The position numbers and the translations under genes were made by a program. Positions 5,925 to 24,000 of a stretch of DNA of 64,000 bases are shown here, piece after piece. The stretch comes from Bursaphelenchus xylophilus (lineage: Eukaryota; Nematoda; Chromadorea; Rhabditida; Aphelenchoididae): the NCBI GenBank assembly GCA_904066235.2, contig CAJFCV020000003.1:186001-250000 (forward strand), written 5' to 3'. Position 1 is the stretch's first letter. Each line of letters begins with the position of its first letter. The notes beneath the pieces were generated by a model, which did no database searches, was not told the origin of the DNA, and worked only from the letters and a program-made list of their open reading frames with translations.

Positions 5925-8900
5925 CTAAAATTTAATGAGCGTCCCGTTGACGGTGAACAACTCATGGCAGAAGCAGTACTCTTTCAGAGGCCCTGGCGGA
6001 ATGCATTTGGCTTGTTTGTCGTAGCTGTCCATACGGGGGAAGAAGTTGTTGTACAACTTGATTTTGTTGTTTTCAATCTGAAAAAGCGGCTATACAGTGG
6101 AAATCTGAGTTTTTTCACTTGGAGACGGAAGCATTTTGCCACATTTTTGATACTTCCCGGATGCAAAATGGCACGTTTTTGGCCAATGGATCAGGTCCGC
6201 CACTGTATTTATTAGGTCTAGAAGTATGACTCTGCCGTTTTTCTGTTTTGCATTTTTTGCAGGTTGCAGTAAGGTTTTAAAATTTCTGTTGAGATCCGCT
6301 GAAAGAACTTTGAAAACGCTATCTATTGATATACGTTTCGTGTGTTGAGGCTAGACGCAGCGGTTTTATGAAGCTTCAAAGATGACCAACTTGGTCCCTG
6401 GAAAATCGTTATTTGCGGGAAATTTTACTCTGCACGTGTAATGCGTCATACTTTTGAAACGGCAGTTTTTTATTATCTTGTGGGACCGAGATAATAAAAA
6501 GTTACTGGCAGCTAGGTATCTATGGCCCAAAAAATAGACACCCTGCCTTACTTACCCCAAAGTAAGCCTGATACTTTCCTCCACTCGGAACAACTGCAAA
6601 TTTGATCAAGTAAACTTTTTCTCCCTCTTCATCCGGATCAAATTCACTCAGTTCCAACAACAACTCCTTGCCCAACGTCAGCACGGAGCAATTGCTCGAG
6701 TAATTTGAGTTTGTAATATTGTTATTCATAATCTCCACCACTTTTTGGCCGGCCTCTATGGCCAATGATTGATTTTGGACCGCGACTTCTTTATGCTGAC
6801 ATATACAGTGATTGAACGGAATGTAAAGGGTGCTACAGTCTCTGGGAGTGGGCAGTGGATGTAATATTGAAGATCCTTTCAGTTCGCGGTCGGTGGGTTC
6901 GAATTTAGTCGTTGAAAATGGCGTTGAAGCCGTCCATTTGTGATTATTCTGGAGTTGACTCATCATGGATCTCCCAACCCTTAGAAACGGACAAAGAAAC
7001 GCTCAACATACCTGCGCAATTTCCGCAAGAGTTGCGTAAACATCATGCTGAGAGAGCAGATGCTTTGTATTTTGTTTGAGCTGATTTACCAAGTCTTCGT
7101 TCTTCCTCATATCTTGAGGCAGTGAGATCATAAAAGTCGGATTACTTGAGTCGATTTTTCCCGTATTTGTCCCCAAAATCCCGCCAAATCGCAGGCCATG
7201 ATCGCCCATTACAATTACGTATGAGTCGTTGAACTGAAAATTGAATTTGCGCTGATGAGAACGTAATGTCAAGTGTTTCATGGTTTCCCAACAAAGAAGG
7301 CTGCAGGAAGTGCCTTCGAGGCCTGGTAAAGCCGTTGGATGGTCGGCGGACGCTCGGCGAAGGCTCGGCGGAAATTTGGCGAAGATTTTTAGCATATATG
7401 TGCATTTTTTCTAATTTTAGCTATTACTAACGTTAGTTTTCTTTAACCTGAGTTAATGTAACATGTAAAAGATTAAAATTTGCGGCAAAAAACAAAGATC
7501 CGTAACTTTAATCCAGAATTATACATGTAAAATACGTCAGAATAGATTTCAAGTTATCCTAGGACTCGTTCAATCTTATTATTTTTACTAACTAAATCGC
7601 TAACCCGAAAATTCGTGGCGCCGGCAAGGCCGGTCAAGTTTCAATCATCATTTTTAGACCTACCTTTTCTCGCATGCTCATAAAGAACAGCTTGAAGTGT
7701 TTGTCGGCATGAAACACGCCGTTGAGCGAGTCATGAGCCAGGCTGACAAACCAGGTGATTGAAAACTTGGGTTGGCCTTTGTAAGCGTCCGAAAATTGCC
7801 GCATATTCTCGAACAGATAGTGATGCGGCTCTTTGCAGACTTTCTCATACACATTTGCAAACAAATCTTCCCATGGGTAATGGTAAAAGAGGTTGTAAAA
7901 ACCGCTGAAATAAAGAGAATCCTTACGAAGTGAAATTTCTAAATACTGCAAAAAATTGCATTTTGTTTGCCTACAGCGACTCTGCTTCCTGCATAACGCT
8001 TACCCATAACGCTTACTTCATATAATGGTCAGCTGGCATGTGATCGAATCCATAGCAACTCCCGTAATCAAACAAGCCATATCGTGAGTCCAGATCAATC
8101 ATCGTCCTGTATCCTCTATCCTCAAAGTCCCAGCCCACATAGCTGAAGTTGTCCCGTGTGATGCGCAGATTGCAAAGCTCCGCGTCTCTTCCGCCGCCTT
8201 TGAATGGGCTCCACGGAGTTTCCGGCATGTCCAAGGGTCGCTGGTCCAACAGGAATGCGTAAGCATTTTGTTTCGAGCCTTCGGCGACTCGGTTCAAGTA
8301 TGGGAAGTGGATTGATCCAAACTCTTCTTCAAGGTACTTCTTGCTCCCTGACAATGTTCGCATAAATTGGTTTGAGCTGATGGAATCGAGGACAAGTACG
8401 TAGACGTCTCTTGATTTTGCATCGAATTTTATTCCCTTGGAAGGTCTGAAATTTACGATGGGCTGAATAATAGAAGCGTAAAATTTTCCTAATTTTAGCT
8501 ATTACTAACGTACGTTTTCTTGACGATGAGTTACTTTAACATATAAATAAAAGACCAAAATTTGCGGCAAAAAATGAAGATCGTAGATATTAATGATGTG
8601 AGTATGTAAAATAACTCAAAATACATCTATTTTGAGTGTATTTTACATAGACGTACGCGTTCGTAGGACCCGATCGGTGTTATTATTTCTACTAACTCTG
8701 CCTTAACCCAGCTTCCCCCATGCATACAATGACGAAGGCATCGTTAACCCGAATTGTCACTAAACCAAAAAGTCGTAGCCCCAATATCTTTAGGGACGTC
8801 TAAAATAGTTTTTTATAAGTGTCGGGCTAGCTGTGCACATGAAACATGATGTTGCAGCAGAGCCGTGAAACAGTAACCATAGGTGTCCCTTATCGCGTGT

Positions 8901-12279: not shown

Positions 12280-12493
12280 TATACGTTATTGGCCATGCTG
12301 AACAACTTTGTAATTGACCCGAAGTTTGTCAGGTTACTGTAACATACCGTAACGCCAATGCTCAATCAAAAAATCTCGATTTTCTCGATTTTTTTCAATA
12401 ATTTTCTCGGAATTTTTTTTCATTTTTGGAATCAGCATCAAATTCTGCATCGGATAGGCTATATGCGCATCTCCAGATAGGTGTACAAAAATG

Positions 12494-12561
12494 TCGTGGC
12501 GCAACCGGTAGTGGGTCGGACTACCATTCAAAAGGTCCCGGGTTCGAGTCCGGGTGGAAGA
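12494..12561 (+). repeat. tRNA-Arg-derived module, left arm
   Basis: TGGCGCAACCGG matches an arginine-type A box. CCCGG-GTTCGAGT-CCGGG forms a good T arm, with the B box at 12541-12551. The anticodon stem does not pair, so a functional tRNA is unlikely. Confidence 0.6.
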
Positions 12562-13430
12562 AAAAATGCTCAAACGCGCTGGAAATTGTCCCAAAACAGT
12601 TGTAATGTATTGGAACTGTGTTAAAAATAAATAATAATTAACATTTTCCCCTAAAAAGGCTAAGTTTTGGATTTTACGAAATTTTTGAAAATCATGATTT
12701 TTGTGGGCCCAAATCTGCCGAAGAAATGAAAATTTTTTGTTAGCGATTTTTTTGTTTAGAAACAACGCAGGGCACACAGAAAGACTATTCCTCAGAGGAT
12801 TTCGCTCTATTTTGCCCAAAACACCAAAAAGTTTTCGCATTTTGCCATTTGACAAAAAATTGAGATAATGATTTTCAGGTGTTCTTACGCGAAAACGTTT
12901 CCAGTTTTTCTAGAGCAGTTTTTTGCGCTGCCTTCAAATAGCTTTCTAACAGCCGCGAAAATCTTCCACAAAAAAGTTTTACATTCAAAAATTTGTAGAT
13001 ATTCACATATTTCATGATGTTACAGTATTTAATCTTGTAAAATTTGCTAAAATTTCGACTCCTCATAGTACAAAACATTTGTATCCACGTTTGAATGACG
13101 TTACTTCGGTTTACTGGGTTCTGGCGGGGCTCTCCGATTAAAACAAAAAAGTGCAACTTTTTGGTGTTTTGGGCAAAATTGAGCGAAATCTTCTGAGGAA
13201 TAGTCTTTCTATATGGCCTGTGTTGTTTCTAAACAAAAAAATCGCTAACAAAAAATTTTCATTTCTTCGGCAGATTTGGGCCCACAAAAATCATGATTTT
13301 CAAAAATTTCGTAAAATCCAAAATTTAGCCTTTTTAGGGGAAAATGTTAATTATTATTTATTTTTAACACAGTTCCAATACATTACAACTGTTTTGGGAC
13401 AATTTCCAGCGCGTTTGAGCATTTTTGCTT

Positions 13431-13497
13431 CCACCCGGACTCGAACCCGGGACCTTTTGAATGGTAGTCCGACCCACTACCGGTTGCGCCACGACAT
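13431..13497 (-). repeat. tRNA-Arg-derived module, right arm
   Basis: Almost identical inverted copy of the 12494 module, with the B box complement at 13437-13447. Confidence 0.6.
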
Positions 13498-13849
13498 TTT
13501 TGTACACCTATCTGGAGATGCGCATATAGCCTATCCGATGCAGAATTTGATGCTGATTCCAAAAATGAAAAAAAATTCCGAGAAAATTATTGAAAAAAAT
13601 CGAGAAAATCGAGATTTTTTGATTGAGCATTGGCGTTACGGTATGTTACAGTGACCTGACAAACTTCGGGTCAATTACAAAGTTGTTCAGCATGGCCAAT
13701 AACGTATATATACTCAGTTCTGAGATATTTTGGCAATAAATCAGTACAATATATCACATTATGCGAAATTCAATAAATACGTCATATCTCGGTCATTTGA
13801 GCCTGCTTCAGCAACTCGCGAAGTGCGTTTTAATATTAAAAATTTCTTT

Positions 13850-15438: not shown

Positions 15439-15603
15439 ATGAAAGAGCTGTTGGTCGCTGTGATTTTGACTGTTTCTGCTCTTCTACTGGACGCACTGAT
15501 CCCAGAATGCTTGAACGACTGGAACTGCCATGGACACTGCAAACCTGAATGCAGATACTGCTCTTGCAATTTCTGGAACTGCATTTGTTTGGTTTGGGGT
15601 TAA
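15439..15603 (+). CDS. Secreted cysteine-rich micro-peptide 1 (54 aa)
   Basis: Intronless frame of 54 codons. Residues 1-20 are a signal peptide (MKELLVAVILTVSALLLDAL). The mature part of about 34 residues has eight cysteines spaced C-x5-C-x3-C-x3-C-x2-C-x-C-x4-C-x-C. It ends LVWG, unlike the LY ending of its paralogues, and the sixth gap is one residue shorter. It is the first of six tandem paralogues. The density of cysteines and the CxC pairs suggest a disulfide-stabilised secreted peptide (defence, effector or toxin-like); the actual activity is unknown. An AATAAA follows the stop by about 13 bases. Confidence 0.85.
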   Translation: MKELLVAVILTVSALLLDALIPECLNDWNCHGHCKPECRYCSCNFWNCICLVWG

Positions 15604-15956
15604 CGTCGGCTTGATAATAAATTTTAAACACTGATGCTTTAATTTCGAAAGGCAAGCTCACTCTATGAGGAATTTTTGTCATTGCCTTTGCTTGAAATAC
15701 AGGGTGGGCAACTCGAAACGGGTAAGTTTCTTCTTTAGATTTCTCCGCGGAGACTCCGCCGATTTTTCTAAAATTTTGATTTTTCTGGAGCTGAGACCTG
15801 CCATTTTCAACAGATTAAATTTCAAAAAATTATATTTTGAATTGACCTTTCTACGCCTTCCCAAAGTTTCGAAGAATTACTAAATATTATAAATTCCCCG
15901 GAAAGCTTTGGTCCATTCGTTTGCAGTACTCCAAACGCGACGCTCAGATTATGATA

Positions 15957-16198
15957 CAGTGACGGACCTTATCCAGTGGCAAAAAACGTACAATTTGGCA
16001 TCCGGGAAGTATCAAAAATGTGGCTAAATGCTTCTCTCTCCAAGTGAAAAAACGCAGATTTCAAAAGCGTCCTTTTTGTGGGGGAAAGGACCCTTCAAAA
16101 AAGTGTCTTTTTTCACTTGGAGAGGGAAGCATTTTGCTTCATTTTTGATGCTTCCCGGATGCAAAATGGTACGTTTTTTGCCTTCATGTACCTCACTA
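15957..16198. repeat. CAGTGGGGGACC-family MITE between peptide genes 1 and 2
   Basis: Left end CAGTGACGGACC after TA; the right end is degenerate near 16198. The central arms contain CTTGGAGAGGGAAGCATTTT. Confidence 0.8.
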
Positions 16199-16319
16199 AT
16201 AAACATGTTTCCCACGCGAAACGATCAGCCTTGAATACAAATTTCCTTTCAGAATGTGGCTTCTTCATGTTAATAAGCTCCTTTTTTGGGGGATCATACA
16301 GATTGCAGACCTTGAGGTG

Positions 16320-16363
16320 CATTTAAGATGCGTTGGTTTTTATTTCCACATCATATCGCCCTA
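16320..16363 (+). promoter_or_regulatory. Core upstream block of peptide gene 2
   Basis: CATTTAAGATGCGTTGGT followed by CATATCGCCCTA immediately before the ATG. It matches the block before genes 1, 5 and 6. Confidence 0.45.
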
Positions 16364-16498
16364 ATGAAGGCCCTGCTGATTGCTGTGCTGTTGATTATTT
16401 GTGCTGTTTTATTGGAAGCACTGTCGGGAGGAGAATGCGACAAGAAATGCCACTATTGCCAGTGCACTCTGTGGCATCACTGCATGTGTTTGATTTGA
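16364..16498 (+). CDS. Secreted cysteine-rich micro-peptide 2 (44 aa, six-cysteine variant)
   Basis: Intronless frame beginning MKALLIAVLLIICAVLLEAL, a signal peptide. The mature part has six cysteines, C-x3-C-x2-C-x-C-x5-C-x-C: the first C-x5-C loop of the other family members is missing and GGE replaces it. The ATG context and upstream block match the paralogues, and AATAAA follows the stop by about 20 bases. It is therefore either a functional short variant with one disulfide fewer or an early decay form. The frame is fully intact, which favours the first reading. Confidence 0.8.
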   Translation: MKALLIAVLLIICAVLLEALSGGECDKKCHYCQCTLWHHCMCLI

Positions 16499-17227
16499 AG
16501 TTGATTTAGAGCTTGAAAATAAATTGGCTTAAGGCCAGATTCTCTATGGTTGTTTTGTCCTTGCTTTTGATTGATAATGAGTTGTTACACAGGAAATTTT
16601 TTCGGATATAAAAAATTTTTTCGAACTAAAAATATCGATTGACATGCAAAGTTCTCGGAATGCGACGATTCTAGCGAAACTTACAGCGGAAGGACCCGAA
16701 GTGTGACGTCAATTACGATCAATCTTTGAGCAAATTTAGATTAATTAATATTTGTGGCAAGACATTAGCTCTGGGACCAGGCCGGGCCCATCGACTTTGA
16801 AAGGACCCCGGTCCAACCGAGGTCCCCGGCCAAGCCCGAAATTGATTCGTGGGCTCTACTTGAGCCCTTCTCCTATGAAGTTTCAGAATTTTTTGCCCGC
16901 ACTCATTGAAAGACTTGAAAATTCATTAAAAGTTCACAGTACTAAATTATGGTCTTGTGATCTCGCGAAACATTTCAAAGTCCTTCTTCTCTTTGTACAT
17001 TAAAATCTGCAACCTTTTGAAACTGTTCAATACGAAAGTTCACCATTGCCTGACATCTTGAATACTATCTCCAATGACCAGCACAATTTTTATTGTTCGT
17101 GTAAAAAACAAAAAGTCCATTGTGAACTGATGGGTGAGGTGAAATGAATCCAAGAGTCGCATGATTTTTCTATATATATCCATTATATTTAGTTGGTTTC
17201 TATTTAATTCTGCAACGTATCACATAA
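16499..17227. other. Spacer between peptide genes 2 and 3
   Basis: Contains a small GC-rich inverted segment (16785-16870, GGCCGGGCCC and complements) resembling the hAT-like cores, and otherwise AT-rich sequence. No gene is seen. The region just before gene 3 keeps only part of the shared promoter block (TTTAGTTGGTTTC, ATCACATAA). Confidence 0.5.
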
Positions 17228-17386
17228 ATGAAGACCCTGTTGATTGCTGTGATTTTAATTGTTTCTGCTCTTCTACTGGAAGCGTGGCCAGATTGCGCAT
17301 GGGACGCGCATTGCGAAGGACAGTGCGGACGGGAATGCCACTACTGTCATTGCACTTACTGGCTCACCTGCGTTTGTTTGTATTGA
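17228..17386 (+). CDS. Secreted cysteine-rich micro-peptide 3 (52 aa)
   Basis: Intronless; the signal peptide is MKTLLIAVILIVSALLLEAW up to about residue 19. Eight cysteines lie at residues 23, 29, 33, 37, 40, 42, 48 and 50 (C-x5-C-x3-C-x3-C-x2-C-x-C-x5-C-x-C). The mature sequence is rich in His, Trp and Tyr. It is nearly identical to peptide 6, differing in a few residues of the first loops, so the two shared a recent common ancestor or converted. The closing motif is TCVCLY. Confidence 0.87.
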   Translation: MKTLLIAVILIVSALLLEAWPDCAWDAHCEGQCGRECHYCHCTYWLTCVCLY

Positions 17387-17447
17387 AGATGACGTACTGC
17401 TGATTGTAATCACTTTGGCTTTAATTGAAAGGGCACATTGACTGAAA

Positions 17448-17510
17448 TGCGTTTGTTTGTATTGGAGATGACCTGCTGCTTGGAAATAAATTTTAAACCT
17501 TTGGCTTTAA
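17448..17510 (+). pseudogene. 3' fragment of a cysteine-rich peptide gene
   Basis: TGCGTTTGTTTGTATTGGAG repeats the last codons and 3' sequence of the peptide genes, followed by AAATAAATTTTAAACCTTTG. The rest of the gene is missing. It is a remnant of an unequal exchange or partial duplication. Confidence 0.65.
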
Positions 17511-18057
17511 TTGTAAGCAAGGGCGTATCTTGCGAGCTTTTCTAGGACGGAAATATAGTACTTTGGTATTGTGTTTTTTGGCTCTATGTGGGCTGTCAAA
17601 TTAAAAATTAACAACGTTACGGAGTCTCAAAGACAATCTCTACAAATTCGTCTTGTTGCATAGTGCCAAAAACCCGAAATTGGCGTCCCAGATTCCCCGG
17701 CCCGGTCCTTCTCGAAATTTTCGAAACCCGTGCCAGCCCGGCCTTGTCACGTCTGCTTTTTTGAACATAAAACAAACTTTTGAAGCAAAAGCATTGGTGT
17801 ATTGAAGTGTTCAGCATCTGAACACAAATAAGACTCGGCACAAATTCAGATTGGCTTTTTCTACGACATGTTCTCTGGACTCCATGCTCGTGATTTTTGT
17901 TCTGGGATTGTGTGGCCGCACTCTCAGAGCCCCGAAAATGCGAAATTCCCATGATTCCAAATTTCGATTATGCAAATTTCCGAAAAAGTTTTGAGAAATT
18001 GGGAATGAAAATGCCGCCAAATGAGCAAAAACTATGAAGATTGGGATGTGAAATTGG
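17511..18057. other. Spacer with GC-rich inverted segment
   Basis: About 17690-17750 contains GGCCCGGTCC and GCCAGCCCGGCC motifs like the hAT-type cores. Otherwise nothing is recognised. Confidence 0.4.
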
Positions 18058-18201
18058 TCATTCCTCTTCGAGAAAATTTCGCCTCAGTCGGTTCCTGTCG
18101 TTCACCTCGCGGAAGTACTTGACTTCTGAACGGTAAGCGACACTGTGTTGAAATTTATTTGTTAGGTAATATTGTACCTCATGGACGGCATGCAATTTTG
18201 A
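18058..18201 (-). CDS. Terminal coding exon of an unrecognised gene (partial)
   Basis: After an acceptor (TTACCAG, minus strand) there are 47 codons of charged, non-repetitive sequence ending NFLEEE before a TGA. A homologous but broken copy lies at 20650-20806 (-): conserved HVVHDVQ and LTNK segments with a stop and a frame shift. Conservation between the copies in this frame argues that it encodes, or encoded, protein. Upstream exons were not found; a partial MITE sits just upstream at 18248-18328. The function is unknown. Confidence 0.4.
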   Translation of the reverse strand, partial: SKLHAVHEVQYYLTNKFQHSVAYRSEVKYFREVNDRNRLRRNFLEEE

Positions 18202-18247
18202 CTGGTAAATTTCTCGGCAACTAGGAGCCCCCATAAAAGAACTACTT

Positions 18248-18328
18248 TTCTTGTGAAATTGGAGTCTTTTCACTTGGAGAGAGAGGTATTTTGCCGCGTT
18301 TTTGGTACTTCCCGGATGCAAAATGGTC
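18248..18328. repeat. Fragment of the CAGTGGGGGACC MITE
   Basis: Only the CACTTGGAGAGAGAGGTATT to CGGATGCAAAATGGT arm remains. Confidence 0.7.
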
Positions 18329-18457
18329 TAATCTTAATTTTTTACGCGGTTTGAGGTCTAAAATTTCCAATTTCTTGTCTAATGTAAGATAATACTTTCG
18401 TTGTATTCCCCGATATTTTTCCTATTTTCAGCCTGAATCAAGTTGAACATCACGGAA

Positions 18458-18616
18458 ATGAAGGCTCTGTTGGTAGTTGTGTTTTTGATGGTCTGCACTC
18501 TTCTGCTGGAAGCGTGGCCAGACTGCGCCTTTTCTTCGGGTTGCATTGATCAGTGCGAACATCAATGCTTCGAATGCAAGTGCAGTTCGTTTCTGACTTG
18601 CGTTTGTTTGTATTAA
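18458..18616 (+). CDS. Secreted cysteine-rich micro-peptide 4 (52 aa)
   Basis: Signal peptide MKALLVVVFLMVCTLLLEAW followed by eight cysteines with the same spacing as peptide 3, but the loops differ strongly (acidic residues and Phe replace the His/Tyr-rich middle). The ATG is preceded by TTTTCAGCCTGAATC, an acceptor-like site about 20 bases upstream, unlike the block of the other members. This leader is homologous to the one before the TRRAP-like gene at 21030. Peptide 4 may therefore be expressed differently from its siblings. Confidence 0.85.
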   Translation: MKALLVVVFLMVCTLLLEAWPDCAFSSGCIDQCEHQCFECKCSSFLTCVCLY

Positions 18617-18987
18617 ATTTGATGTCTCGAAAAATAAATTGTAATCACTTTGGCTTTGTGTGGAAGGACAATTTTCTCTGTGAATGTTTTGTCTTTGCTT
18701 TTGTTACAGTTTGAAGGGCTATGGTGTGGTCAAATTTAAACAAGTTAATGGCTTAAAAGTCGCAACAACAAGGGAGAGAACGGCACCAAAATATCCAAAA
18801 AAAAATTTTTTTTGGCGAAATTCCTTTCCAATGTTGAAAATTCGACTTCTGTGTGCTAATAAGGTGTTTTATTGTCTTTTTGGGAACAAATCGATTTCGG
18901 ACCTCGGAGGTGCATTTATGATATGTCGGTTTGTCTGTCTCCATCACATCACATACACAAATGAAACGACTTACAGACCCTGAAACG

Positions 18988-19031
18988 CATTTAAGGCGCG
19001 TTGGTTTTCATTTATACATCATATCACATAA
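18988..19031 (+). promoter_or_regulatory. Core upstream block of peptide gene 5
   Basis: CATTTAAGGCGCGTTGGTTT, then TATACATCATATCACATAA, immediately before the ATG. It is identical to the block before gene 6. Confidence 0.5.
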
Positions 19032-19190
19032 ATGAAGGCCCTGTTGATTGCTGTGATTTTGATCGTTTGTGCTCTTCTATTGGAAGCATGGCCAGATTGT
19101 ATGTTGGACGTGGATTGCATAGGAAAGTGCGAACCTGAATGCCACTACTGTCATTGCACTCTCTTTCTTACATGCACTTGTTTCTATTGA
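19032..19190 (+). CDS. Secreted cysteine-rich micro-peptide 5 (52 aa)
   Basis: Signal peptide MKALLIAVILIVCALLLEAW and eight cysteines in the family spacing. The first loop is MLDVD rather than AWDAH, and the closing motif is TCTCFY. The central PECHYCHC segment matches peptide 3. The frame is intact with no intron, and AATAAA lies about 20 bases after the stop. The signal peptide is nearly invariant among genes 3, 5 and 6 while the mature loops vary. Confidence 0.87.
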   Translation: MKALLIAVILIVCALLLEAWPDCMLDVDCIGKCEPECHYCHCTLFLTCTCFY

Positions 19191-19242
19191 AGATGAACCA
19201 CTGCTGAAAAATAAATTGTACTGACATGCTGTAGTGAGACTT

Positions 19243-19750
19243 TCTGCGCCCCAAAATTGTTGGCCTACGATTTGTTACGACGCATAAAAGAAGTATTTTT
19301 GACTCAAGTGAAGGGAGTTAAACATTGATCAGAACACTAGACATGTTCTGGTATATGTTTTCTCGCAAACAAATACAGTTTGAAGGGCTATGGTTTTACT
19401 GGTGTAGTCAAATTGGAACAAGTTATTGGCTTAAGGGTCACAAGAACAAGAAAGAGAAGAGCAACGCACGTCAATCCAAAATAGAAGAAAAAATTTCCCG
19501 GCCCTTTTTGGTGATTCGTTCAAAACGAAATGTCACTATCCGATAAAACGCATTTTCTTGTCTTTTTTCCAGGAAGCCCCAAACTTCCTTCCAATATTGG
19601 AAATTCGGCTTCTGTATGCTAATAAGGTGTTTTTATTGTCTTTTTGGGGACGAAGCAGATCTCGGACCTCGGAGGTGCGTTTATGATGTTGGTTTGGGTT
19701 TCTCCAACACATCACATACACAAATGAAACGACTTACAGAGCCTGGGGCG
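19243..19750. repeat. Duplicated upstream segment of peptide gene 6
   Basis: Homologous to 14954-15400 before gene 1, sharing TTGGCCTACGATTTGTTA, the AGAACA/TGTTCT dyad and TGAAGGGCTATGGTTTTA. Part of it (from TTTGAAGGGCTATGG) also recurs at 18710-18970 before gene 5. A relic ATGAAACGACTTACAGA occurs at both 18961 and 19723. Confidence 0.7.
19331..19349. promoter_or_regulatory. Conserved inverted repeat upstream of peptide gene 6
   Basis: AGAACACTAGACATGTTCT is the same dyad as at 15039-15057, with two changes confined to the spacer. Confidence 0.4.
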
Positions 19751-19794
19751 CATTTAAGGCGCGTTGGTTTTCATTTATACATCATATCACATAA
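19751..19794 (+). promoter_or_regulatory. Core upstream block of peptide gene 6
   Basis: CATTTAAGGCGCGTTGGTTT then TATACATCATATCACATAA before the ATG. Confidence 0.5.
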
Positions 19795-19953
19795 ATGAAG
19801 GCCCTGTTGATCGTCGTGATTTTGATTGTTTGTGCTCTTCTACTGGAAGCATGGCCAGATTGCGCATGGGACTCGCATTGCCGCGGACAGTGCGGACGTG
19901 AATGCCACTTCTGTCATTGCACTTACTGGCTCACCTGCGTTTGTTTGTATTGA
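19795..19953 (+). CDS. Secreted cysteine-rich micro-peptide 6 (52 aa)
   Basis: Signal peptide MKALLIVVILIVCALLLEAW and eight cysteines in the family spacing. It differs from peptide 3 mainly at WDSHC versus WDAHC, RGQ versus EGQ, and HFC versus HYC. AATAAA lies about 19 bases after the stop. It is the last gene of the array. The downstream TTTGGCTTTAATTGTGAGAG block is shared with the other members, so the duplicated unit includes the 3' end. Confidence 0.87.
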   Translation: MKALLIVVILIVCALLLEAWPDCAWDSHCRGQCGRECHFCHCTYWLTCVCLY

Positions 19954-20350: not shown

Positions 20351-20649
20351 TAGCGGATAAAACAAACCAAATTTGGTTTATGGAAACGCGATTACGAAGA
20401 AGTAAATAGTGACACTTCGTTTTGAACGAATCACCAAAAAGGGGCGGGAAATCTTTTCTTCTTTAACGAAATGTCAACAATCGATATTGAGACGAAATAT
20501 CAAACCCGAACTTGGCTGTTGTTCCAGATTTGCCACGTTTGCATGTGCGTTGCGGATGCCGACGAAGAGTTTGTGGAAAAATGTGAAAATTTACATTTAT
20601 TTTTTATTTGAGTTTCAAAAATTCCTTTTGCATTTGCGTCTCATTTCTC

Positions 20650-20806
20650 TTCCATAAGATTTCAATGTTCGGTCGGTTATTTTCTTTCTCCTTGTGGAAG
20701 TATTTGAAGCCTGAACGGTAAAGTTGACCGTGTTATAATTTTTGTTAGTTAGCTAATCTTGAACATCATGGACAACATGTGGTTTTGTCGTCAGATCAGA
20801 CTTTTT
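20650..20806 (-). pseudogene. Broken copy of the 18058-18201 coding exon
   Basis: Same-frame similarity to the exon at 18058-18201 is interrupted by an in-frame stop and a frame shift. It is part of a longer duplicated block that continues to about 21030. Confidence 0.5.
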
Positions 20807-21029
20807 CCTTGTGACGTAATTTTACATTGTTCCTTACACCTGAATTCATTTTTTTTCTGGTTTTATGCGCAGTATCCGTATTTCTATTCTGTTGATTATG
20901 TGTAATGTGTTGATCTATGTCTGATTTAATTGATTCTAAATTTTATAATTTATTACCTAAAGTAATATTCTCCTTGTATTCGTCGATGTTTTCAGTCTGA
21001 ACCCCACAAATCTTTGAACGCTTACCATC

Positions 21030-24000
21030 ATGATGATGTTCGAGCCAGAGGAAATTTCTTACGCCGATCGCGTCAACATTATTTTCCATCGAATCAAAAT
21101 GGAGCCATTAGGACCGAAACGATTTGATCTGGCCAAAAATTTGATTCAAATTGGCTATTCGTACAACTTGTCCGACGATATTGTGGTCAAATGTATGAAC
21201 TTGTGCTTGATTGTGCAGAGCAATGAGGAGCGATTGGAGGCTGAATCTACGCTCTTTTCGATGATCGAGATGATTTCCAAGAGGAAGCCGAGGATCTTCG
21301 ACGATTTGCCGAGATTTTTTGAAGCCTCCCTTGTGGATCCAAAGTTGGCCGTCGAGAAGGCGATTATTTGTCTGTGAGTTATTTTCGTTTTTTGTTTGGT
21401 ATTTAGACGAAGAAAATAGCTTCAAATTGACATCAACAAGTGATGTTATTCATGTCTATTATTTTTTCAAATTTTACGTGATGGTCTGAGGAGATGACTG
21501 CATTTTGACAAAAAATTATTATTAGATCTCTCTTCTTCCAGCCGAGCCATTTCCATCGACGAAGCGGTCCTATATCCACTCCGCCTTCGGCTTGTACCAT
21601 TCATGAAGAAAGCTTTGGACAAGATCTGCTCCAGTCTGCCAATTCAACGCCCATTTGTGGCCGTCAGTGTGATGAAGATCTTGGTTGGGTGGCAGAAGCG
21701 GAGAAATGCCATGGAGAAAGCAAAGAAAGGTGTAGATTGGGAGATAGCGTGTGTGGTGAAAGATCTAGTGGATAAAGTCGTGTCTAATGTGGATAGCACC
21801 GTAAAAGTAAAGAAGGAGGAGTTGGTGGAAGATGAGGATCTCAAAGACATACCAACAACATATTTTGAGCATATTGCTTGCATCTTGATCAGAATCGGGA
21901 CCACTTTGCATTCAGTTCGAAGATTTGGAGAGGTATTGATCTTTTATTTCAAAAACTGTCTAGTTGTTTGTGTAATTCAGTGGAATTATTTTTAGCCATA
22001 CAAAGATCAACGTGCCACGGTGTCGTCAGATCAGCCGGGACGGAGTTGGGTAAGTCTTTTTCAATTGTGTTTGTCGATTTTTAGGCACCTCAATTGAAAT
22101 CGGACATTTTCCATCTACTCTCGACTGCATTGGCCAGAAATTTTTGTAGAACGGATGTGAGGGTCAAGTCTGATTGGTTTGAGTACCTCATCGATCAGTC
22201 CAAGTCGCTACCGGACACCGCGGAGAGATCCCATGCCGTCTCCGAGTTTTATTACACATTATACTTCTTTGTGGAGATGTTTAGTGAATGTCGTGATCAA
22301 TATGTGCTGATGAAGATTGTCAGAGGAGTGGAGAGGATCCTAACAAATGTCTTTGAGCACAAAATTGTGACTGTGAGTTGGAGTTGGTTGAAGTTGTGAG
22401 CTCTTTTGTTGTTTTAGGTATATACAACAGCTTTCCTCCTGACGTCTCGGATTTTTGGATTGAGCAGATCCAGGTCGGGCTTAGATGCCGCTCCCCACCT
22501 TTTTCAGCACGTGATGAGTTTTTTCCGCCACTTCTTCACGAAGTTGGCGGACCCGCAGACCAATTTCGACTTGAGTTTCTTGAAACAAATCCGAATCTCC
22601 ACCAATTTCTTGGCCACGATTTCCAAGTTCCAACCCAACTTCATCGAAGGAGTTTCGATCAACTTTTTTGTCAAAGCGGCTGAAAAGATTGTCCACATGT
22701 TTGTCCGCAACGTCGAGCTGAACGCGGAGAACCCCAGGATTTTCGAATCGCCCGAGTATCAGAATTTGTTGCGAAGTGTTACGTCAATTGTTCGTATCAT
22801 TACGCCTTGTCTATATAAGGCTTCGCAGGTTGGTTGCTGCATTTTTTTTGATTGCTTTTTACCTTTAGGAGGTCTGTCGCAACGTTTCGCAAAGCATTTT
22901 GATGCCGGCGGTTCCGATTGTCCTGCCCTCGCATCTGGTCGACCGCGATCTTCTTCACCACCTCCTGGTCACGCTGATACCTCTGTTGAACGGCCCCGCG
23001 GCCCCATCCTATTGTGTCCCACTTCTTCACCGTCTCTCAACTTTTCGGCATTTGATTTTCCAGCAAAAGGAGAGTTTGCAACCGATTTTCAAACGCATCA
23101 TCAGGCATATTAATGGGTCGCAAACCCTGCGAACTACGAGACTCATGGCGGAGGTGGAGCCGATTTTGGTGGTGGAACAGTTTAAAAGAGACCTGAAGAG
23201 GGCGTATGAGATTAAGAAGGAGATGTCGCAGATCCAGAAAACTTTCTCGTCGAAGGATGGCGATAGAGGTATAATGAAGAAAAAAATTTTCGATTTTTGG
23301 CAAATTTGATTTTGTTCATTGCTGGATAAAGTAATTTTTGTTTGATTCCAGCCCTGAGAGAAGAAATGGACGACATCCTGAAAAAACATTTTGCCTATAC
23401 GGTCCCCGGATACATCCATCCGCAGAATTTGTATGAAATCCCAACCCTAATGGCACTCCGAGCCAAATTGTTGGAAATTGCGACAGATGCGACGTTTGAG
23501 TAAGTTGATTTGTTGTGGTTTTTTATTGTTTTAGTGAGGTGAATGAACTCTTCCTTTTGGCGATTCATATGGTCGAAGAGGCGAAGAAACAACCAAAGCC
23601 GGTTCATCAACGGATTCGAGAAGAAGAACGAAAGGTCTTCAAGTATTATTCGGAATACCTGGAGAAGAATTTGGCCCAAGCGGTGAGGAATGTTGAGGAT
23701 GGATCTGCGGTGTAAGTTGGTTTTTTTATTTTGTGTCTTTCCGCTTTAGGTCGATGAATTCGGAGTTGGACGATTGGGGAAACCGAAAATTATTATTTTC
23801 CTTCGATGCAAAGGTCGAAATTAGGATAATCGAGGGTGCTGATTGCGAAAATGACATTCGTTTTTTGATTGTTACTTTTTTCTTAAGTAGTACTATTAGG
23901 TAGTAATTTTTTGAAAATTTTCCAAAAATACTGGATTTAGGGGTTTTCGAAGGTGCTGGTTTCGAAAATCATGTTAAATTTTCCTCTAGTACTCAATAGT

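What the first reader, a model, noticed from the sequence alone, without database searches (positions are those of the whole stretch)
15439..19953. Tandem array of six secreted cysteine-rich micro-peptide genes
Six intact intronless genes of 44-54 codons share a signal peptide of the MKALLIAVILIVCALLLEA type. The mature part of about 33 residues has (mostly) eight cysteines in C-x5-C-x3-C-x3-C-x2-C-x-C-x5-C-x-C. I know no described nematode family with this exact spacing. Signal peptides are nearly fixed while loops vary, which is typical of defence peptides, effectors or venom-like peptides. The two C-x-C pairs and His/Trp-rich loops suggest disulfide folding, or possibly metal binding. Seen: frames, spacing, duplicated flanks. 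Inferred: secretion and function.
Basis: partly seen in the sequence, partly recalled or inferred. Interest (0 to 1): 0.92.

Follow-up and report, generated by a model that had tools for sequence, protein, structure and literature searches.

The report
Fast-evolving secreted cysteine-rich peptide genes
The pinewood nematode carries a small family of tiny, apparently secreted, cysteine-rich peptides whose cysteines never change while the loops between them change unusually fast, the mark of peptides caught in an arms race, although what they act on is not known.

Summary
Six intact genes (44-54 codons) lie head to tail on the + strand, window 15439-19953, each with a near-fixed hydrophobic leader and a Cys-rich mature part. 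The genome matches the published Bursaphelenchus xylophilus Ka4C1 assembly. Searches of it give nine family genes: the array plus one each on contigs C1, C3 and C6. Seven have 8 Cys, two (g2, p9) have 6. The exact quoted spacing holds in 5 of 9.

New here: a partitioned codon model gives dN/dS about 0.38 for the leader, 0 for cysteines and 1.95 for loops (p = 8e-4; 1 of 80 null simulations as extreme). In three overlapping 8-Cys pairs the loops also outrun their non-coding flanks 2.9-4.6-fold. So the loops look diversifying on a fixed cysteine scaffold.

Mature peptides are neutral to acidic (9 of 9). The species' gland-effector promoter motif has no exact copy within 1 kb upstream (0 of 9). 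Pfam and PDB give nothing convincing; nematode proteomes could not be searched and structure prediction was off. Best reading: secreted disulfide-rich arms-race peptides, more likely defence/competition than gland effectors. Secretion, disulfides, expression and target are inferred.

The parts
15439..15603 (+). g1: 54-codon gene; 8 Cys, spacing 5-3-3-2-1-4-1
   Evidence: AATAAA within 30 nt of the stop
16364..16498 (+). g2: 44-codon gene of the 6-Cys type (first two Cys missing with an 8-residue gap), spacing 3-2-1-5-1; an in-frame upstream ATG lies at 16328
17228..17386 (+). g3: 52-codon gene, 8 Cys, spacing 5-3-3-2-1-5-1; closest to g6 (88% aa)
17439..17517 (+). duplicated 3' tail of the gene (end of coding part plus poly(A) signal region) behind g3, not a complete gene
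   Evidence: family D4; one search match at C3:203448-203517
18458..18616 (+). g4: 52-codon gene, 8 Cys, exact spacing; different 5' end with a TTTTCAG acceptor-like site
19032..19190 (+). g5: 52-codon gene, 8 Cys, exact spacing
19795..19953 (+). g6: 52-codon gene, 8 Cys, exact spacing; near flanks 90-92% identical to those of p7 on contig C6
19749..19794 (+). conserved block next to the start codon (CATTTAAG..CGCGTTGGTTTTCATTT..CATCATATCACATAA), clear in 6 of 9 genes (g1, g2, g5, g6, p7, p9), partly kept in g3, absent from g4 and p8; a TATA/initiator-like role is inference
   Evidence: ungapped listing before each ATG
18058..18457 (+). 5' region of g4: possible leader exon and intron; 18058-18200 is 71% identical over 147 columns to 20641-20787 upstream of the Tra1-like gene, and p8 carries a related piece
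19467..19569 (+). short interspersed repeat upstream of g6 (41 matches listed, a lower bound: 40 of 267 candidates scored); also upstream of p7

Best explanation
A family of secreted, disulfide-rich peptides that evolves under diversifying selection. Each gene gives a 44-54 aa precursor; the leader (about 19 aa) is cleaved in the secretory pathway and the 25-35 aa remainder is oxidised into a compact scaffold (probably four disulfides in the 8-Cys type, three in the 6-Cys type). The cysteines hold the fold and the loops carry the binding surface, which changes quickly because the target, most likely a microbe or fungus met at the cuticle, in the gut or in wood, changes too. Duplication in the array and dispersal to other chromosomes supply variants. 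Because the peptides are neutral to acidic and mostly rich in aromatic residues, they more likely bind a specific target than lyse membranes by charge. Shown: genes, family, two cysteine types, selection pattern, charge. Inferred: cleavage, disulfides, expression, target, defence role.
For: Nine genes with open frames and no internal stops. Six Cys invariant in 9 of 9, the other two in 7 of 7 that have the region. Codon model: loops omega 1.95, leader 0.38, Cys 0.001, p = 8e-4; loops 1.62-2.20 across nine settings (two of which share a topology and are identical), p < 0.05 in 8 of 9; parametric bootstrap: 1 of 80 null sets reaches the observed ratio. Loop non-synonymous divergence over non-coding flank divergence in the four pairs tested: 2.9 (g5/g6, p 2e-4), 4.4 (g6/p7, p 3e-8), 4.6 (g5/p7, p 5e-8), 1.8 (g2/p9, p 0.07). 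Tandem duplicated units. Leader mean hydropathy 2.6-3.7 with Ala at position 19 in 9 of 9.
Against: No transcript, peptide or activity was seen. Net charge 0 to -5 is unusual for antimicrobial peptides. With synonymous sites instead of flanks as the yardstick the excess is smaller: pooled over 36 gene pairs the loops' pN/pS is 0.95, and the codon test on g3, g5, g6, p7 alone is not significant (p = 0.155). The three significant flank pairs share genes and are not independent; upstream flanks may be constrained as promoter, which would inflate the ratios. The same selection pattern is known in reproductive proteins and venoms (recalled), so it does not single out defence.
Confidence: 0.45

Rival explanations
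1. Secreted effectors that act on the pine or on the fungi the nematode feeds on, delivered from the pharyngeal glands or another secretory tissue.
For: Pioneer secreted proteins are common in this species: 923 without similarity elsewhere (PMC3164644, passages seen). Diversifying selection also fits a host arms race. STATAWAARS with one mismatch occurs within 1 kb upstream of 4 of 9 genes (g4, g6, p7, p8, no control made).
Against: No exact STATAWAARS or STATWWAWRS within 1 kb upstream of 9 of 9 genes; the four exact STATAWAARS sites of the window (1.6 expected) lie elsewhere. The parent motif is reported in 62% of 42 training effectors (PMC6062891, passages). But nine paralogues are not nine independent promoters, and 38% of those effectors lack the motif too.
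Confidence: 0.22
2. A true CS-alpha-beta defensin with two extra cysteines between the helix pair and the strand, that is, a divergent relative of the nematode/mollusc defensins.
For: The eight Cys contain the core C-x5-C-x3-C-x8-C-x5-C-x-C, which carries the CSH cysteines (C-x3-C ... C-x-C) of the ten-cysteine reference array (PMC5116183, section read). A first PDB profile search listed five weak hits, among them a plant defensin E 0.24, heliomicin E 5.5 and two scorpion beta-KTx-type peptides E 1.4 and 9.6.
Against: With all nine mature sequences these hits vanish; the only hit listed is nigellin-1.1 at E 1.8. No Pfam defensin in 9 of 9. The GXC gamma-core is absent: the residue two before the strand cysteine is Cys in 9 of 9. 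g2 and p9 lack two of the six core cysteines. A loose core of this kind occurs in 89 of 630 reorderings of the same intervals (14%; the exact 5-3-8-5-1 in 14 of 630), so the resemblance is weak evidence.
Confidence: 0.15
3. Reproductive or pheromone-like peptides evolving by sexual conflict or mate recognition.
For: Diversifying selection and small secreted size fit.
Against: Nothing specific in the sequence; no expression data available.
Confidence: 0.12
4. Secreted metal-binding, metallothionein-like peptides using the C-x-C pairs and His.
For: Two C-x-C pairs; up to 3 His.
Against: His 0-3 and absent in p8 and p9; 4-6 aromatic residues in 8 of 9 (2 in g2); secretory leader; no Pfam metallothionein match.
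Confidence: 0.03
5. Non-functional duplicated ORFs without a product.
For: No transcript evidence available here; coding and flanks equally diverged in g2/p9 (identity 0.87 versus 0.87-0.88).
Against: Cysteine codons never change to another residue while loops do; leader constrained; nine open frames; AATAAA within 90 nt of the stop in 8 of 9 and about 100 nt for g3.
Confidence: 0.03

Closest known systems
Nematode/mollusc defensins (ABF, 'MND' subgroup of CS-alpha-beta peptides)
   Same: Small secreted nematode peptides with eight cysteines; a 6-Cys variant with rearranged bonds is known in Ascaris (PMC10506718, section 17 read).
   Different: Here there are two cysteines between the helix pair and the strand cysteine, none after the last C-x-C, no GXC, acidic to neutral charge, no Pfam match. 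PF16839 (Antimicrobial25; that it is the ABF family is recalled) gave 0 matches in this genome, but it rang in only 1 of 14 control genomes, an archaeon, below the cut-off, so this says little.
B. xylophilus pharyngeal-gland effectors with the STATAWAARS promoter motif (PMC6062891, passages)
   Same: Small secreted pioneer proteins of the same species.
   Different: No exact motif within 1 kb of 9 of 9 genes.
Venom-type and mussel cysteine-rich peptide families (recalled: conserved leader, fixed Cys frame, hypervariable loops)
   Same: Works like them in evolution: leader constrained, Cys fixed, loops omega above 1.
   Different: No sequence relation found. Pfam hits are at noise level, each in 1 member: DUF5676 E 0.057, Myticin-prepro E 0.43, DUF1181 E 0.59 (6 precursors) and Toxin_34 E 0.13 (9 mature parts).

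Membership tests
CS-alpha-beta superfamily | CSH cysteines C-x3-C and C-x-C (reference positions 3, 4, 8, 9) | tested here: inconclusive
   Spacing present in 7 of 9 genes; g2 and p9 lack the first Cys of the pair. A loose core of this kind also appears in 14% of reorderings.
CS-alpha-beta superfamily | GXC gamma-core at the strand cysteine ('generally' present, PMC5116183) | tested here: not met
   Cys, not Gly, at that place in 9 of 9
CS-alpha-beta superfamily | Profile similarity to a known member | tested here: not met
   Pfam none in 9 of 9 mature parts; the PDB profile hit to a plant defensin at E 0.24 with six precursors was lost with nine mature parts
CS-alpha-beta superfamily | Helix plus two strands with three bridging disulfides | not testable with these tools
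   Structure prediction switched off
Nematode/mollusc defensins (ABF) | Eight Cys with C5-C10 as fourth bond, i.e. a last Cys behind the C-x-C | tested here: not met
   No Cys after the last C-x-C in 9 of 9
B. xylophilus STATAWAARS gland effectors | At least one STATAWAARS within 1 kb upstream | tested here: not met
   0 of 9 exact; 4 of 9 with one mismatch
B. xylophilus STATAWAARS gland effectors | Signal peptide | tested here: inconclusive
   Hydrophobic leader in 9 of 9; no SignalP available
B. xylophilus STATAWAARS gland effectors | Gland-cell transcript above 100 FPKM | not testable with these tools
   No expression data held
Metallothionein-like | Cys thiols for metal, few or no aromatic residues, intracellular (recalled) | tested here: not met
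   2-6 aromatic residues, secretory leader
Cationic antimicrobial peptides | Net positive mature peptide | tested here: not met
   K+R minus D+E from 0 to -5 in 9 of 9

The most novel reading that the evidence does not exclude
A structural class of nematode arms-race peptide outside the five nematode antimicrobial groups listed in the 2023 phylum survey (PMC10506718): a compact acidic eight-cysteine framework with a natural six-cysteine form, kept variable by diversifying selection, and possibly private to Bursaphelenchus or its close kin (not tested). The joint absence of the first two cysteines in g2 and p9 (one deletion, so one event) would fit a C1-C2 bridge and hence a disulfide topology that is not CS-alpha-beta.
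Probability: 0.3. Interest if true: 0.62.

Novelty: new variant of a known kind. Interest (0 to 1): 0.43.

Why it matters
[quoted passage not shown] A peptide family with loop-specific diversifying selection points to a biotic conflict (microbe, fungus, tree, beetle or mate) that I found no paper on. The genes are only 44-54 codons long and so may be missed by gene finders (inference). The two natural cysteine types give a ready comparison for working out the disulfide topology.

Tried and rejected
A relative at C5:4826652 (E 0.014, stop inside) was rejected: reading it shows a long frame of another kind. Protein-universe searches with 6 precursors (E up to 0.1) and 9 precursors (E up to 1) gave 0 hits, but a DUF229 exon from the same window also gave 0, so that database probably holds few or no nematodes and the blanks say little. 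Defensin_2 PF01097: 0 matches, but it rang in 0 of 14 controls. PF16839: 0 matches, control weak. GATA-type sites upstream were counted without a control; nothing is made of them. The repeat beside g6 and p7 was considered as a vehicle of dispersal; it is a common interspersed repeat and what I saw of the boundaries does not show transposition of the gene. Pooled pN/pS of loops (0.95) alone would not show positive selection; the partitioned codon model and the flank yardstick do. A first G+C figure came from a wrong record in my script and was replaced. Papers: nine paper runs showed no title or abstract start on this family; the lists were capped (for example 20 of 250, 10 of 19), only the open-licence library was searched, supplements could not be read, and I do not know the gene names of these loci.
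Full report
WHERE IT IS. The genome handle has 78,253,340 bases; the largest contig seen, C1, has 15,101,617 and the window has 40.4% G+C. The B. xylophilus Ka4C1 v5 assembly is described as 78.3 Mbp, largest scaffold 15,101 kb, 40.4% G+C (PMC7561696, whole text read). I therefore take the window as B. xylophilus, contig C3:186001-250000; the array lies about 0.2 Mb from one end of a 12.7-Mb contig. One difference: 8 contigs here against 11 scaffolds in the paper.

OBSERVATION. The six frames are present at the stated coordinates. They are the only 6 of 248 ORFs of at least 40 aa in the window with the shared six-Cys core. The duplicated units extend into the flanks.

THE WHOLE FAMILY. A genome search with g6 gave 9 matches, all at E 2.1e-4 or better (cut-off E 10). 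Searches with p8, p9 and g1 returned the same nine plus one rejected match. A DNA search with the g6 gene returned 11 pieces: the nine genes (g2 in two pieces) and a duplicated gene tail behind g3. The three outside genes are p7 (C6:11260508), p8 (C1:4094196) and p9 (C3:2848137), all with open frames. g2 and p9 form a 6-Cys type whose first two cysteines are missing together with a gap of 8 residues; they are 87% identical in coding DNA and all six Cys are kept.

SELECTION. Nei-Gojobori counts pooled over all 36 pairs give pN/pS 0.33 in the leader, 0.71 in the mature part and 0.95 in the mature part without Cys. In a codon model written for this purpose (shared branch lengths, three partitions), omega is 0.38 for the leader, 0.001 for Cys and 1.95 for loops; omega = 1 for loops is rejected, p = 8e-4. 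Nine settings (base case, equal codon frequencies, topologies from leader or mature codons, star tree, three subsets, no leader; the mature-codon topology is the same as the base case) give loops 1.62-2.20, p < 0.05 in 8; the exception is the smallest subset, g3, g5, g6, p7 (p = 0.155). Of 80 alignments simulated with loop omega 1, one reached the observed likelihood ratio. As a second yardstick, g6 and p7, on different contigs, differ at 28 of 309 aligned flank sites (9.1%) but at 40% of loop non-synonymous sites and at no Cys site. g5/g6 and g5/p7 agree (their short 40-nt downstream stretches are 19-20% diverged), g2/p9 is not significant (p = 0.07); only these four pairs were tested, and the first three share genes. 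Synonymous sites in g5, g6 and p7 are more diverged than the flanks, so the flanks may be partly constrained and the ratios 2.9-4.6 are upper estimates.

CHEMISTRY. Mature parts (after Ala19, cleavage inferred) have 25-35 residues, 6 or 8 Cys, net charge 0 to -5, 2-6 aromatic residues and 0-3 His. This argues against a charge-driven membrane mechanism and against metal binding as a conserved function. Disulfides are inferred from the even number of Cys, their invariance and the secretory leader.

REGULATION. A block of about 45 nt before the start codon is conserved in g1, g2, g5, g6, p7 and p9, and partly in g3. g4 and p8 have another 5' end with TTTTCAG close to the ATG, and share sequence with the region upstream of a Tra1-like gene at 21030 (Tra1_ring E 7e-4, below Pfam's cut-off). 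AATAAA follows the stop within 90 nt in 8 of 9 and about 100 nt in g3. The gland-effector motif STATAWAARS (PMC6062891, passages) has no exact copy within 1 kb upstream of any of the nine; with one mismatch it is found upstream of g4, g6, p7 and p8.

COMPARISON. Pfam gives nothing above noise for six precursors or nine mature members. The PDB profile of six precursors brought a plant defensin at E 0.24 and four weaker hits; the profile of nine mature parts did not. The CS-alpha-beta reference array (PMC5116183, abstract, section 5 and passages) can be laid on the 8-Cys type, but 14% of the 630 orders of the same intervals allow that too, GXC is absent, and the 6-Cys type breaks the core. The nematode AMP survey lists five groups and 61 putative AMP genes in B. 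xylophilus (PMC10506718, passages and section 17); whether these nine are among the 61 I could not see. The helminth AMP discovery paper (PMC10414684, passages) notes that Cys-rich candidates dominate and were not explored further there; the stage transcriptome and first genome papers (PMC6465311, PMC3164644; passages) do not mention such a family in the passages seen.

VERDICT. A real, small, fast-evolving family of secreted-type Cys-rich peptides. As a kind (arms-race peptides on a cysteine scaffold) it is familiar; as a framework it is unmatched in the libraries at hand. Function is inference; I put defence/competition first at 0.45, effector second at 0.22.

Noticed in passing
window 20634-21030 and 18058-18457: The region upstream of a gene with weak Tra1_ring similarity (E 7e-4) shares 71% over 147 columns, including a possible splice donor, with the 5' region of g4; p8 on another contig carries a related piece. 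The peptide gene and the neighbour may have exchanged a promoter or leader exon.
   Followed up: partly
window 19467-19569 and 20406-20462: Short interspersed repeat (41 matches listed in the genome, a lower bound, most 95-98% identical), with part of it in inverted orientation on the other side of g6.
   Followed up: partly
window 12334-12909 (-) and 13142-13654 (+): Two nearly identical open frames in opposite orientation, an inverted duplication of about 0.5 kb, no Pfam family.
   Followed up: no
window 15978-16182: 98-nt inverted repeat arms (85% complementary) with 9 nt between them, between g1 and g2; a related copy near 18250-18327.
   Followed up: no
window 7006-8498 (-): Two exons of a DUF229 protein (Pfam E 1e-18 and 4e-18), upstream of the array on the other strand.
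   Followed up: no
L006 2719 onward (+): Open frame beside p8 with a Cys-rich stretch that looks like a CCCH zinc finger (recalled resemblance).
   Followed up: no
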